NCBI RefSeq assembly: GCF_917563915.1
Contig: NZ_CAKJTI010000009.1
Location: 101,933 to 165,932 of the forward strand
From: Bacillus rhizoplanae
GTDB taxonomy: Bacteria; Bacillota; Bacilli; Bacillales; Bacillaceae_G
Direction: 5' to 3'
Length of the DNA stretch: 64,000 nt
Below are positions 7,801 through 11,891 of the stretch, piece after piece; position 1 is the stretch's first letter; every line of letters starts with the position of its first letter. Below the pieces are notes generated by a model. The model saw nothing but the letters and a program-made list of their open reading frames with translations, was not told the DNA's origin and searched no databases. The position numbers were made by a program, and so were the translations under genes.

Positions 7801-9225
7801 TTAACTAATTTTTGTATCAAGTGTTTCTATGTTCTTTTCAGTAGTATTTTTCATGATAAATGGATAAAGAACTAATCCAATTACGAATAATCCTATTCCT
7901 AGTAAGAACGTTTTTATATCAGCTGTCCCTGTTTTGATAACCCAAATTGAATATATAAGAGCAAGTACTGTAATTACTCCGTCAACTTTGCGAGAGCCTT
8001 GCATGACGTTGTATGTTTCACCAGTAATAATGAGTTTTAATTGATACAATGTTGAAACAAGGTACGGAATTAAATAGGCAAGTGTAGCGACAACAATTGC
8101 AAAGTTATACGCCTCTGATACTGACCCTGAAATAGTAGAGAATAAGAATATTTGTGTCATGATATTTGTTAATAATAATGAGTTCGTTGGGCTTCCTTTT
8201 TTATTTGTTTTTCCAAAGAATGCTGGGAATAATCCGCTTTTTGCTGCTTGATATGGAACTTCTGCACTTACAACGATCCAACCGACTGTAGAGCCGAATA
8301 GAGAAACAAGTGCTAGAAATGCCATAATGTATGCACCTTTATTACCAATAGCCATGTTTAATGCATCAACCAATGGTTTTTGTGATTCTTTTAGCACATC
8401 TTGTGGAAGAGCACCCATTGTTAATAATGTAATTGCTACGTAAATAAGAAGAGCAATTACTAATCCGAAAATCGTTGCTTTTTTTACATCGCGTTGTGAT
8501 TTCGCACGGTTTGAAAGCATAACGGCTGACTCAATACCAATAAACGCCCAAAGTGTTGAGATGGCAGCAGCATTGACTTGTCCGCCTAATGGGATAGACT
8601 TTCCAGCTTCATTCATAAAAGTTTGACTATCGCCGAAATTAGCTGCATTAAAAATGAATAATGTAATGATAATAAACATTGTAAACCCAATAATTTTTGC
8701 GACAGTTGCCAGTAAATTCATATTACCAGCATGGTCAATATTTTGGGAAAGAATATATTGAATGCCCCATAGCATAATACTACATACAGCAAATGTTAAG
8801 GCTTTTCCAAGTTCTAATGAAAAACCATTTGTTGTGAATAAAACTTGTTTACTTTGCATAACTGGGAAAAACGTAGATAAATATCCTGCAAATGAAATGA
8901 TGACAGAAGCTGTTGCAGCCCAGTTTGCAGCCCAGTAACCCCAAGCCATACTATAACCAGCAACTTGCCCAGCTTTTGGCGACTTAAACATTGCTTGGGC
9001 ATAGCTTTGCGGACCAGCTTTTAAATTTGGTTTGCGCATTGCTAAGTTTCCAAATACTAGTGCAATCATAAATACCCCAAGCCCGGTAATTGCCCATGCG
9101 AGCGTCGAACCCATTGATCCTGATACTTGAGCTAAATTTGCTGGAAGCATAAACACGCCGCCCCCAACCATATTTCCAACAACGAACGCTGTTAAAATCC
9201 ATAAACCCCATTTTTTTGTTTCCAT
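7801..9225 (-). CDS. APC-family amino acid permease/antiporter behind a His-rich leader attenuator
   Basis: A 474-residue polytopic protein of about 12 helices. The N-terminal signature GNMVGGGVFMLPANLAQ and its overall composition place it in the basic amino acid/polyamine antiporter group (ArcD, agmatine and histidine/histamine antiporters). A ribosome site (AAGGAG) lies upstream of the ATG on the minus strand. What makes it unusual is the 235-base leader. It encodes a short peptide with three consecutive histidine codons, followed by alternative hairpins and a terminator. That context suggests histidine, or an amino acid or amine derived from it, as the controlled substrate. The permease sequence alone cannot confirm substrate or direction of transport. 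No decarboxylase or deiminase gene is adjacent. Confidence 0.85.
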   Translation of the reverse strand: METKKWGLWILTAFVVGNMVGGGVFMLPANLAQVSGSMGSTLAWAITGLGVFMIALVFGNLAMRKPNLKAGPQSYAQAMFKSPKAGQVAGYSMAWGYWAANWAATASVIISFAGYLSTFFPVMQSKQVLFTTNGFSLELGKALTFAVCSIMLWGIQYILSQNIDHAGNMNLLATVAKIIGFTMFIIITLFIFNAANFGDSQTFMNEAGKSIPLGGQVNAAAISTLWAFIGIESAVMLSNRAKSQRDVKKATIFGLVIALLIYVAITLLTMGALPQDVLKESQKPLVDALNMAIGNKGAYIMAFLALVSLFGSTVGWIVVSAEVPYQAAKSGLFPAFFGKTNKKGSPTNSLLLTNIMTQIFLFSTISGSVSEAYNFAIVVATLAYLIPYLVSTLYQLKLIITGETYNVMQGSRKVDGVITVLALIYSIWVIKTGTADIKTFLLGIGLFVIGLVLYPFIMKNTTEKNIETLDTKIS

Positions 9226-9291
9226 GATTGTGTAACTCCTTTTTGTAGTAGTTTTTTTGTTTTATTATTTTTTGTACCTAGTGTTTTTTGG

Positions 9292-9336
9292 AAATAAAAA
9301 AGAGCCATGTAGATGAAAAATACCTACATGGCTCTT
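9292..9336 (-). terminator. Attenuator terminator in the leader of the APC permease gene
   Basis: Read on the minus strand, AAGAGCCATGTAG (complement of 9324-9336) pairs with CTACATGGCTCTT (complement of 9300-9312) over 13 bases around an 11-base loop, followed by a T-rich run. It lies between the leader peptide and the permease start, so it acts before the gene rather than after one. Confidence 0.85.
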
Positions 9337-9340
9337 GATC

Positions 9341-9406
9341 CAACGTAGGTACAACGGGAATAACCCTTGTACCTACGCGTTTTTTTTCCGCTAGGTTCAA
9401 GGGTTT
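9341..9406 (-). promoter_or_regulatory. Alternative antiterminator hairpins of the leader
   Basis: On the minus strand, segment 1 (complement of 9391-9406) can pair with segment 2 (complement of 9362-9379). Segment 2 can instead pair perfectly over 11 bases with segment 3 (complement of 9344-9354). Segment 3 also matches GTAGGTA in the 5' arm and loop of the terminator. Segment 1 begins immediately after the leader stop codon. These exclusive pairings are the layout of translation-controlled attenuation. Confidence 0.7.
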
Positions 9407-9461
9407 ACGTATGATGATGTTGTTTTTGTGCAAATGTAACTACAGTTGTATAAGTAAGCAT
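9405..9461 (-). CDS. Leader peptide with three consecutive histidines
   Basis: An 18-residue ORF, MLTYTTVVTFAQKQHHHT, reading from 9461 to the stop at 9405-9407 on the minus strand. A strong ribosome site (GGAGAAAGGGAG) precedes the ATG. The run of three CAU codons just before the stop resembles the his operon leader peptides of enteric bacteria. It lies directly before the alternative hairpins and terminator that precede the APC permease. Length, codon run and position all fit a ribosome-stalling sensor of charged histidinyl-tRNA. Its translation is inferred. Confidence 0.72.
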   Translation of the reverse strand: MLTYTTVVTFAQKQHHHT

Positions 9462-9503
9462 AGTTCTTTGCTCCCTTTCTCCTCTGATTTTGAAGTAAGT
9501 ATA

Positions 9504-9932: not shown

Positions 9933-11891
9933 ATGGAAAATAGGAAGTCGGCTAGATCTCTTGTTGGGGGGATAATGTTTGTATGTGTTGTCCTTTTTAA
10001 CTTTTCAAAATCAACATATGCTTATATTCCTTCTGAAAATCAAATTGTAAAGAGCAAACCAAATCATTATGGAACTGAGGGAAATCAACCAGCATATGAT
10101 ATTTGGGGACAAACGATTTCGCAAAAAAAGGCGAATGAGTTGTTAAAAACGAAAGAAGGCAAAGCTTTATTATCACCACAAAACGGAGCAGTGAAAATTG
10201 ACAGAGAGTTATTAAAATTGGGGAGAGAGTCTTTTTATGAAGAAACATTTGGAAATGAAGTGTTTCTTACAGACATAATGGGTATTTTAAACGGTGCGTT
10301 AACTTTGGAAAATATTAAAAAAGCAATTTACGACTTGCATGGAAAAGGGACAACAAATTTACGTGTCGAACTGGCGAAAACTGTGAAAATAGGAGATAAA
10401 ACGTTTGAAAAAGGAACAAAGGTTGATACTGGTTTAGATGTTTCAAGAGGTTCTAATGAAGTGTTAGGGATGCCTATTATTAAGTCTGAAGGAAGAGAGA
10501 AGATAGGAGTAAGCTGTGCTGCATGCCACGCAACGGTAACAAGAGATACAAAAAAAGTTATTGAAGGTGCTGCAAATAATGATTTTAATGGCGGTCTCAT
10601 TTTAGCACTAGGGACAAATTCAGCAGCTTATTTTTCTCGTGCAGAAATTAAGTCGTTACAAGACTATATAAAAGATTTAGGGCGAACAGTAGTAACCTCT
10701 GATGGAAAAAAAGCTCCGCTTCCTGATCCAGGGATGATAGAGGAGACTGTAGATCGTACTTTATTAAAATGGCCAAGAGGAAACTTTGATGCGAGTAGTG
10801 ATTTGGTGAATAATCCAACACAAATTCCAGATTCTTTTACATTTGGAGATCATCCTTATGGGTGGAATGGGTTTGCACAAGCTGGTCCGTTTAAAGGACT
10901 AAGTGTAATTAATAGTGCTGTAAATATTCAAGGATCAGATTTAACGACATTAGCACATGCTAGTCCATTCCTTTTCAAAATCGACAAGGAAGTTTATTTA
11001 GGAACAATGTTACAAAATGCAGCGAATCTAAAATATCGATATGATCCTAAAAGTGGAAAGAAACCATCTGAGTTTTTTGCTTCAGTAGACCCTACTCCAG
11101 GAGTTCCAGGAGTAAATGAGTTAATTGCGCTTCCGACATTTCCAAGGCCTTCTTTAATCTCTCCTAATGGTTTATTATCAAGTTCTCCTGGCTATCGAGT
11201 CATGGAGCAAAATAATGGAATGTCTGCATTACAAAATACATTTGTTTCCCCTAAACCACCATTATCTGTTGATGATAAGACGATGAAAAAAGGGAAGAAC
11301 GTTTTTGCACGTGCAGGCTGTATTACTTGTCATGCGGGACAAACCTACACAAATAATCGAATTATTCCAGTTAACGAAATTAAGACAGAGCCATCAAGGG
11401 CAAAATCATTTGAAGCAATAGGTAAAAACTTAGCAGAGCCTATTATTTATTCACCGGATACATCTGTACCTGTACCAAAAGGAGCAAAATTGTTAAAAGT
11501 TCCAGCCTATTCATTAGATAAAGAGAAGATTAACTTAGCATATATGTTAAATAGTTCACCTGGTGGTTACAAAGTTCCAAGCTTGTTAGGGCTTTATTGG
11601 GGAGCGCCGTATTTACATGATGGAGGTGTTGCGGTTGGCCAAAACGTGGAGAGTGAACTAGGTATGACAGGAACCGTATCAAAAGGAATTGAGCCTAATC
11701 CGTTTAACAGCTTACGAGCATTAATTGACCAAAACTTGAGAAGAAAAGTAATCGAGGCAAACAAAAATTCAAAGGATTTACAAGACGCACATATTACGGG
11801 GGAAGGACATGAATATTGGGTAGATTCTTCTACAGGTTTTTCAAAGCAAGAGCAAGATGCGTTAATCAACTATTTACTCACATTAGAATAA
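9933..11891 (+). CDS. Secreted di-heme cytochrome c (peroxidase/RoxA-like family)
   Basis: A 652-residue exported protein. An N-terminal signal sequence (hydrophobic stretch about 11-30, ending YAYIP) directs it outside. Two c-type haem sites are present: CAACH near residue 195 and CITCH near residue 463. A C-terminal PSLLGLYWGAPYLHDGG motif (about 548-570) is typical of di-heme cytochrome c peroxidases and RoxA/LatA-type rubber oxygenases. The spacing of 268 residues and total length fit the large RoxA-like group better than classic CcpA peroxidases of about 330 residues. The ribosome site GGAGG precedes ATG 9933. No c-type biogenesis or partner gene is adjacent, and it is a monocistronic unit followed by a bcr1 copy. 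Substrate unknown: peroxide, a small organic molecule or an electron-transfer role are all possible. Confidence 0.82.
   Translation: MENRKSARSLVGGIMFVCVVLFNFSKSTYAYIPSENQIVKSKPNHYGTEGNQPAYDIWGQTISQKKANELLKTKEGKALLSPQNGAVKIDRELLKLGRESFYEETFGNEVFLTDIMGILNGALTLENIKKAIYDLHGKGTTNLRVELAKTVKIGDKTFEKGTKVDTGLDVSRGSNEVLGMPIIKSEGREKIGVSCAACHATVTRDTKKVIEGAANNDFNGGLILALGTNSAAYFSRAEIKSLQDYIKDLGRTVVTSDGKKAPLPDPGMIEETVDRTLLKWPRGNFDASSDLVNNPTQIPDSFTFGDHPYGWNGFAQAGPFKGLSVINSAVNIQGSDLTTLAHASPFLFKIDKEVYLGTMLQNAANLKYRYDPKSGKKPSEFFASVDPTPGVPGVNELIALPTFPRPSLISPNGLLSSSPGYRVMEQNNGMSALQNTFVSPKPPLSVDDKTMKKGKNVFARAGCITCHAGQTYTNNRIIPVNEIKTEPSRAKSFEAIGKNLAEPIIYSPDTSVPVPKGAKLLKVPAYSLDKEKINLAYMLNSSPGGYKVPSLLGLYWGAPYLHDGGVAVGQNVESELGMTGTVSKGIEPNPFNSLRALIDQNLRRKVIEANKNSKDLQDAHITGEGHEYWVDSSTGFSKQEQDALINYLLTLE

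What the first reader, a model, noticed from the sequence alone, without database searches (positions are those of the whole stretch)
7801..9503. Histidine leader-peptide attenuator in front of an APC permease
Seen on the minus strand: an 18-residue ORF with a strong ribosome site and three consecutive His codons before the stop, then three segments with mutually exclusive pairings, then a 13-base terminator stem with a T-run, then the permease. A ribosome stalled on the His codons would leave segment 1, which starts just after the stop codon, free to pair with segment 2, freeing segment 3 to invade the terminator. A ribosome reaching the stop would cover segment 1 and favour 2:3 plus termination. 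Translation-controlled his-type attenuation is classical in enterics; Bacillus more often uses T-box RNAs, so this layout is unusual and suggests that the permease imports histidine.
Basis: partly seen in the sequence, partly recalled or inferred. Interest (0 to 1): 0.82.

Follow-up and report, generated by a model that had tools for sequence, protein, structure and literature searches.

The report
Histidine-sensing RNA switch before permease
A short RNA leader with three histidine codons very probably lets a Bacillus-type bacterium switch on an amino-acid importer when histidine runs short; it belongs to an already glimpsed family of such switches, and many related bacteria seem to control the same importer with a histidine repressor protein instead.

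Summary
Confirmed. On the minus strand an 18-codon ORF (9461-9405, ending HHHT) precedes five pairing segments, an intrinsic terminator (9336-9300) and an APC permease (9225-7801). Best reading: leader-peptide attenuation. A ribosome waiting on His codons leaves segment 1 free, so 1:2 and 3:T5' form (read-through); a ribosome at the stop codon covers segment 1, so 2:3 and the terminator form. Ectobacillus panaciterrae and Bacillus sp. 165 have the same element before orthologous permeases. A model built from it found 19 His-leader copies in 16 of 397 genomes, before hisZ-, hisS-, hisD-, yuiF-like and other genes; closer looks added 4 genomes. All four helices covary. The first His codon lies 14-15 nt before helix 1:2 in 15 of 20 copies. 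In 44 of 47 close permease orthologs a HisR-like box lies upstream; the two attenuator-bearing ones lack it. HisR is missing from 17 of 20 attenuator genomes. Histidine is thus the likely signal and probable cargo. Precedent: His leaders before hisZ and hisS* in bacilli (2010) and B. cereus-group his operons (2022). The permease target and the HisR swap are additions. Predicted default without a ribosome is read-through, unlike E. coli his. Nothing has been measured.

The parts
9471..9478 (-). Ribosome-binding site of the leader ORF (AAAGGGAG)
   Evidence: Sequence; AAAGGGAG identical in window, L019 and L048
9405..9461 (-). Leader peptide ORF MLTYTTVVTFAQKQHHHT*
   Evidence: L019, L048, L117, L120 leaders also end in HHHT*
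9411..9419 (-). Three consecutive His codons CAT CAT CAT (control codons)
   Evidence: two or three adjacent His codons in the 20 members analysed, which were chosen for having a His leader
9389..9403 (-). Segment 1; pairs with segment 2; its 5' part is covered by a ribosome at the stop codon
   Evidence: 1:2 helix: 84.1% of cells paired, 9 of 14 pairs with changes on both sides; spacing
9364..9379 (-). Segment 2; pairs with 1 (read-through) or 3 (termination)
9344..9358 (-). Segment 3; pairs with 2 (termination) or, by TACCTAC 9351-9345, with the terminator 5' arm (read-through)
   Evidence: 2:3 92.6% and 3:T5' 97.1% of cells paired
9321..9336 (-). Terminator 5' arm (T5'); loop-proximal GTAGGTA 9327-9321 is the antiterminator partner of segment 3
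9300..9314 (-). Terminator 3' arm (T3')
9296..9301 (-). T-run of the intrinsic terminator
7801..9225 (-). APC-superfamily permease, 474 aa, basic amino acid/polyamine antiporter type; predicted histidine importer or exchanger
   Evidence: Pfam PF13520 1.6e-46; NCBIfam TIGR00905 350.5 bits, below its 409-bit cut-off, and no listed NCBIfam model reached its cut-off; best PDB relatives are AdiC

Best explanation
A translation-sensing transcription attenuator that raises permease transcription when charged tRNA-His is scarce. Segments 1-2-3-T5'-T3' can pair as 1:2 + 3:T5' (read-through) or 2:3 + T5':T3' (termination). With an empty A site on a His codon the ribosome's leading edge lies at or just short of segment 1, so 1:2 forms, segment 3 is released, and it holds T5' while RNA polymerase passes the T-run. 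With enough histidine the ribosome runs on to the stop codon, covers the 5' part of segment 1, 2:3 forms and the terminator closes. The number of segments is odd, so an untranslated leader is predicted to read through. Shown here by computation: the parts, their conservation, covariation, spacing and masked folding. Inferred: ribosome stalling, termination in the cell, and histidine as the transported substrate.
For: Same leader and attenuator before orthologous permeases in L019 and L048. Model R1 gave 30 matches in 27 of 397 genomes; 19 matches in 16 genomes carry a His-run leader: before hisZ-like (9), hisS-like (2), hisD (1), yuiF-like (2), the permease (2), an alpha/beta hydrolase (1) and an unknown ORF (2). 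Four of the 19 were in the model itself; 15 were new. Four further genomes (G007, G010, G015, G019) have a hisZ-type His leader that the stricter search missed. All four alternative helices covary on 11 sequences, slid versions far lower. Masked folding: window P(3:T5') 0.99 at His1, 0.07 at stop, 0 of 200 shuffles; 14 of 20 members have at most 10 of 200 shuffles as switchable. His1-to-helix distance 14-15 nt in 15 of 20 although the stop codon shifts by 8 nt between types. HisR-like box before 44 of 47 close orthologs against 19 of 1167 control windows; the 3 without are L019, L048 and L040; the window has none. HisR gene absent above cut-off from 17 of 20 attenuator genomes, present in 13 of 13 other genomes searched that carry the permease and in 10 of 10 further genomes of the order. 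No Rfam family matches the window.
Against: No expression or transport data. At equilibrium the window terminator wins once about 10 nt of T3' are exposed even in the stalled state, so the switch must be kinetic. Six of 20 members (L117, L120, L139, L140, L141, L162) show a masked-fold difference that shuffles often match (24 to 99 of 200). Three attenuator genomes (G228, G068, G010) keep HisR and one HisR-less genome (G005) shows no attenuator; most HisR-less genomes belong to one family (18 of its 19), so the link may be shared ancestry. The box pattern with up to 2 mismatches is no commoner genome-wide than its reversed control (38 against 38 matches in 15 genomes); only its position recurs. 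No sigma-70-type promoter was found by the consensus scan. B. subtilis polymerase is reported to outrun ribosomes (review PMC10953045, passages), which would weaken a ribosome-timed attenuator. The permease family is best known for arginine, ornithine, lysine and agmatine (and recall).
Confidence: 0.84

Rival explanations
1. The conserved RNA is a ligand-binding riboswitch or binds a protein, and the His-rich ORF is incidental.
For: Segments 1-3 are almost identical in sequence in window, L019 and L048, and the untranslated RNA has a definite predicted fold.
Against: In the wider family the sequence changes while pairings are kept. The distance from the His run to helix 1:2 is fixed in 15 of 20. 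No Rfam match.
Confidence: 0.04
2. The leader works as the classical enteric type: an untranslated leader terminates (superattenuation) and the stalled ribosome itself masks segment 1.
For: This is the reported behaviour of Listeria Rli60 start-codon and ribosome-site mutants (PMC5864092, passages) and of E. coli attenuators in general (recalled).
Against: With a recalled footprint of 12 nt beyond the first A-site base, a His1-stalled ribosome ends at or just short of segment 1, and the unmasked window transcript is predicted to hold T5' (0.99 by the looser measure).
Confidence: 0.06
3. The signal is a metal or a general translation slowdown: the HHH peptide binds metal, or any stalled ribosome triggers read-through.
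For: The leaders of L005 and L007 are very His-rich with a Cys (HHHRYHHHSC, HHHQNHHHSC), which could bind metal.
Against: Genes behind most copies are histidine biosynthesis, histidyl-tRNA synthetase-like and yuiF-like transport genes; leader residues other than His vary; permease orthologs carry HisR-like boxes.
Confidence: 0.03
4. The terminator is constitutive and the permease has its own promoter downstream of it; the similarity is a conserved but idle relic.
For: The G004/G006 copies stand before an unknown ORF rather than a known histidine gene.
Against: Four overlapping helices are maintained by covariation, which an idle relic would not keep.
Confidence: 0.03

Closest known systems
Histidine leader peptides of bacilli before hisZ and hisS* (Naville and Gautheret 2010, PMC2965389; passages, section 10)
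   Same: Short ORF with a run of His codons and a predicted terminator in bacilli; hisZ-like and hisS-like copies are found by the model built from this element.
   Different: The words 'amino acid permease' do not occur in its main text; pairing logic and polarity are not given in the parts read.
his-operon RNA attenuators of six B. cereus-group species (Ashniev et al. 2022, PMC9413887; passages, outline, section 6)
   Same: Leader with three to five His codons, terminator and antiterminator, in lineages lacking HisR.
   Different: The table rows seen list only the his operon as attenuator target in the B. cereus group, and Table 2 lists his operon, yuiF and hisR as HisR targets in Bacillales; this permease is in neither. 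Additional file 6 was not readable here.
E. coli/Salmonella his leader (Rfam RF00514)
   Same: His codons in a leader peptide decide between terminator and antiterminator.
   Different: No RF00514 match at the gathering score; odd number of segments, so the predicted default is read-through rather than termination (comparison from recall).
Listeria Rli60 ilv attenuator (PMC5864092, passages) and S. aureus ilv leader (PMC5794164, passages)
   Same: Ribosome-mediated attenuation with experimental support in Firmicutes.
   Different: Branched-chain amino acids. Rli60 start-codon mutants lower expression, the opposite of the prediction here; in S. aureus a Leu-to-stop change in the leader arose in a suppressor and was predicted to relieve repression, which fits the polarity here.
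Lysine riboswitch (RF00168) before paralogous permeases
   Same: RNA control of a permease of the same family.
   Different: Found before 5 of 9 relatives of 52-58% identity (5 of 6, 0 of 3); none in the window or in the 10 close orthologs scanned.

Membership tests
Bacillaceae His leader-peptide attenuators (hisZ / hisS* class) | Short ORF with ribosome site and a run of His codons near its stop | tested here: met
Bacillaceae His leader-peptide attenuators (hisZ / hisS* class) | Intrinsic terminator between leader ORF and gene | tested here: met
Bacillaceae His leader-peptide attenuators (hisZ / hisS* class) | Mutually exclusive antiterminator and terminator pairings, kept by covariation | tested here: met
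   single-sequence test
Bacillaceae His leader-peptide attenuators (hisZ / hisS* class) | Recognisable relation to hisZ and hisS* leaders | tested here: met
   Model R1: hisS-like 89.6 and 73.4 bits; hisZ-like only 32.8-37.9 bits, within the range of rejected hits (29.4-43.1 bits), so that part rests on leader and gene
Bacillaceae His leader-peptide attenuators (hisZ / hisS* class) | Read-through responds to histidyl-tRNA charging | not testable with these tools
   Needs reporter or RNA measurements
Enteric histidine operon leader (RF00514) | Match to the Rfam covariance model | tested here: not met
   No match at gathering score in the window
T-box leader (RF00230) | Match to the Rfam model; T-box motif upstream of the gene | tested here: not met
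   No match in the window; no T-box-like motif in the 600 nt upstream of any of 52 fetched relatives
HisR regulon | HisR-like operator (cacTTTAnnnnnnTAAAgtg) upstream of the gene | tested here: not met
   Best score upstream of the window permease 15 of 22, against 18 or more in 44 of 47 close orthologs
Histidine-histamine antiporters (NF040512, TIGR04298) | NCBIfam cut-off | tested here: not met
   209.4 of 725 and 180.3 of 750 bits

The most novel reading that the evidence does not exclude
This is a five-segment, 'fail-on' attenuator class: because the number of pairing segments is odd, the leader reads through unless a ribosome reaches the stop codon in time. That parity would suit bacteria whose RNA polymerase outruns the ribosome, where the classical even-segment design would stay shut, and it spread as the regulon-wide substitute for the lost repressor HisR across biosynthesis, tRNA charging and import.
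Probability: 0.35. Interest if true: 0.72.

Novelty: new member of a known kind. Interest (0 to 1): 0.5.

Why it matters
It gives a probable substrate and control for a permease found across Bacillaceae, and suggests that one gene is under two unrelated histidine controls, a repressor in most relatives and an RNA attenuator where the repressor is gone. It also offers a natural test of how ribosome-timed attenuation can work in Bacillus, where transcription and translation are reported to be uncoupled: the predicted effect of removing the leader start codon (more read-through) is opposite to that of the textbook design.

Tried and rejected
T-box, lysine or other riboswitch: no Rfam match in the window, no T-box motif in 52 relatives. 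HisR operator in the window: not found. Copies of the leader on plasmids: none; the exact core in viral contigs: none. Permease on plasmids: one 51% relative only. Of 18 HHHT-stop matches in 21 genomes only 4 carry the attenuator; the other 14 were set aside by reading them. Eleven of 30 model hits were rejected for lack of a His leader; two of these lie at TPP riboswitches.

Rows left out of counts. Alignment A4 holds 11 of the 20 members (10 distinct); the nine hisZ-type copies were left out because I judged by eye that their middle part would not align. The four extra copies are in neither the folding nor the spacing counts. L020 and L049 were dropped from the permease tree (no open frame of 400 aa from the aligned start). 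L051 and L052 (24-25% identity) were left out of the box counts.

Results that do not fit neatly. The his operon of Ectobacillus (L097) has no HHH leader and no HisR-like box. Among 14 hisZ-like loci (L097-L110) 6 have a box scoring 18 or more. L040 (Priestia) has HisR but no clear box.

Full report
WHAT IS THERE. The minus strand holds, in order: a ribosome site (9478-9471), an 18-codon ORF MLTYTTVVTFAQKQHHHT with TAA (9461-9405), segment 1 (9403-9389), segment 2 (9379-9364), segment 3 (9358-9344), an intrinsic terminator with 15 pairs (9336-9300) and a T-run, then a 474-aa APC permease (9225-7801). The region folds far better than shuffles (z -7.4). The ORF is one of 3 among 1698 short ORFs in the window that contain HHH, and the only ATG-started one of the 3. 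No Rfam family matches the window.

RELATIVES WITH THE SAME GENE. A scan of genome contigs gave 52 loci. Two of them, L048 (Ectobacillus panaciterrae) and L019 (Bacillus sp. 165), have the same leader and attenuator before an ortholog of 78% and 74% identity; their leader peptides are MFNVTLFAQLHHHT and MFNTTMFVQLHHHT. Segments 2 and 3 and the terminator 5' arm are identical in all three. On the permease tree L048 is the nearest row to the window and L019 about the fourth nearest, with weak support for the grouping.

RELATIVES WITH OTHER GENES. A pattern search for HHHT-stop codons in 21 genomes found 18 matches against 2 for the reversed pattern; only 4 of the 18 carry the attenuator. A covariance model from five sequences searched against 397 genomes of the order, with strict filters, gave 30 matches in 27 genomes. 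Nineteen matches in 16 genomes carry a short ORF with a His run in the right place; four of these 19 were in the model by construction. They precede the permease (G001, G002), the unknown ORF (G004, G006), hisS-like genes (G228, G020), hisD (G068), a yuiF-like Na+/H+ antiporter-family permease (G006, G004), an alpha/beta hydrolase (G001) and hisZ-like genes (nine genomes). Annotation was by profile for one hisZ-like protein (TIGR00443, below cut-off), both hisS-like proteins (one a fragment below cut-off), hisD (above cut-off), one yuiF-like protein (Pfam; the name is recalled) and the hydrolase; the other hisZ-like and yuiF-like proteins were judged by likeness of the translations. In L139 and L164 the gene begins 595 and 441 nt after the terminator. 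Eleven matches lacked such an ORF and were rejected. The 10 non-hisZ copies scored 57 bits or more; the hisZ-type copies (32.8-37.9 bits) overlap the rejected ones (29.4-43.1 bits).

COVARIATION. On alignment A4 (11 sequences, 10 distinct) the four helices were counted separately. 1:2: 84.1% of cells paired, 9 of 14 pairs with a change on both sides. 2:3: 92.6%, 4 of 14. 3:T5': 97.1%, 2 of 7. T5':T3': 97.1%, 4 of 14. Slid versions reach at most 56.3% paired. Cells paired and the covariation score exceed all 500 shuffles for every helix. The number of pairs with a double change is reached by 0, 11, 247 and 24 of 500 shuffles for the four helices in this order, and the number of further pair types by 0, 228, 466 and 476, so those two measures support 1:2 best and 3:T5' least. 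The structure was written from the window sequence and the rows are related, both of which favour it somewhat. Example: GUAGGUA becomes GCAGG or GUGGGUA in segment 2 and in the terminator 5' arm together, with matching changes in segment 3.

RIBOSOME MASKING. Transcripts ending before T3' were folded after removing the nucleotides a ribosome would cover (leading edge 12 nt beyond the first A-site base, a recalled value). For the window P(3:T5') is 0.99 with His1 in the A site and 0.07 with the stop codon in the A site; none of 200 shuffles of the middle region switches as much. Fourteen of 20 members have at most 10 of 200 shuffles as good; L117, L120, L139, L140, L141 and L162 have 24 to 99. 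A footprint 3 nt longer lowers the at-stop value for L117, L120, L141 and L162 but not for L139 and L140, by the looser measure. As T3' emerges the terminator overtakes: in the window, with 8 nt exposed, the stalled state is still 0.96 antiterminator while the at-stop state is 0.87 terminator; with 10 nt both are terminator. The decision must therefore be kinetic. That about 8 nt of T3' would be outside the polymerase at the end of the T-run is an estimate from recalled footprints.

SPACING. The first His codon begins 14-15 nt before helix 1:2 in 15 of 20 members and 7-10 nt in five (L117, L120, L139, L140, L141, where the predicted helix extends further 5'). Between the permease and hisZ types the stop codon moves by 8 nt relative to helix 1:2 while the His distance stays within one nucleotide. 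Nine of the 15 are closely alike hisZ leaders, so the count is not 15 independent events. This is what a ruler set by the stalled ribosome would give.

POLARITY. Without a ribosome the window transcript holds T5' upstream (0.99). So the predicted default is read-through, opposite to E. coli his (recalled) and to Listeria Rli60, whose start-codon and ribosome-site mutants lower expression (PMC5864092, passages). In S. aureus a Leu-to-stop change in the ilv leader arose in a suppressor and was predicted to relieve repression (PMC5794164, passages). A review reports that B. subtilis polymerase escapes its ribosome and that uncoupling may be common in Firmicutes (PMC10953045, passages). That a fail-on design would suit such bacteria is my inference.

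HISTIDINE AS SIGNAL AND LIKELY CARGO. PMC9413887 gives the HisR operator consensus cacTTTAnnnnnnTAAAgtg (section 6). With a simple score of mine a box of 18 or more of 22 lies upstream of 44 of 47 close orthologs, against 19 of 1167 control windows of equal length and 13 of 571 windows of matched A+T. Many of the 47 are close kin (Peribacillus), so these are not 44 independent events. The three without it are L019, L048 and L040 (Priestia). The window has none. Taken genome-wide, the pattern CACTTTACCAAACTAAA with up to 2 mismatches is no commoner than its reversed control (38 against 38 in 15 genomes), so single boxes prove little and the recurrence before this gene carries the argument. HisR (PF01371) is absent from the genomes of L019 and L048 and present in the 13 others searched (L001's genome is not held). 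Over all genomes tested it is absent above cut-off from 17 of 20 attenuator genomes, present in G228, G068 and G010, absent without an attenuator seen in G005, and present in 10 of 10 other genomes of the order. Eighteen of the 19 genomes of the G001 family lack it, so shared ancestry may explain much of the link. Relatives of 52-58% identity have a lysine riboswitch in 5 of 9 cases. The permease falls in the basic amino acid/polyamine antiporter family without meeting any NCBIfam cut-off, so histidine transport is inferred from regulation only.

NOVELTY. His leaders in bacilli were reported before hisZ and hisS* in 2010 (PMC2965389, section 10) and before his operons in six B. cereus-group species in 2022 (PMC9413887). 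Searches of the held open papers listed no paper that I could see reports this permease as a target; I read passages of few of the listed papers, and subscription papers and supplements were not searched. I therefore file it as a new member of a known kind.

LIMITS. No B. cereus-group genome other than possibly the window was at hand, so the leader could not be followed within that group. No expression data were available. E-values from the model are rough.

Noticed in passing
L005:4789-4926 and L007:4776-4916: These permease orthologs carry both a HisR-like box and a different, very His-rich leader (HHHRYHHHSC, HHHQNHHHSC) with no evident terminator before the permease; mechanism unexplained, perhaps control of translation.
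   Followed up: partly
L001-L042 and L046-L050, except L019, L040, L048: upstream of the permease: HisR-like operator before 44 of 47 close orthologs; this permease is not among the HisR targets listed for Bacillales in PMC9413887 Table 2.
   Followed up: yes
L117 and L120, downstream of the attenuator: Unknown 149-aa ORF behind a well-conserved His attenuator in two genomes whose best permease match is only 52% identical; no Pfam match.
   Followed up: partly
L162:1501-1623: Second His attenuator in the Ectobacillus genome, before an alpha/beta hydrolase gene with no known histidine role.
   Followed up: no
L057, L059, L060, L061, L062 upstream of the paralogous permease: Lysine riboswitches before paralogs of 52-58% identity: sister permeases seem split between lysine and histidine control.
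   Followed up: partly
L175, near position 1500 on the minus strand: A second, weaker model match in genome G015 with a leader-like ORF ending HDHHPLRG.
   Followed up: no
L121, L122, L125, L126, L127, L128, L132 near position 1500: A short conserved stretch with three His codons, Thr and stop recurs in seven genomes of one family without the attenuator; nature unknown.
   Followed up: no
L020:4293-4866: Group II intron matches just upstream of the permease in Weizmannia acidilactici.
   Followed up: no
window 9933-11891 (+): Divergent neighbour of the attenuator: a 652-aa protein with two CxxCH haem motifs.
   Followed up: no
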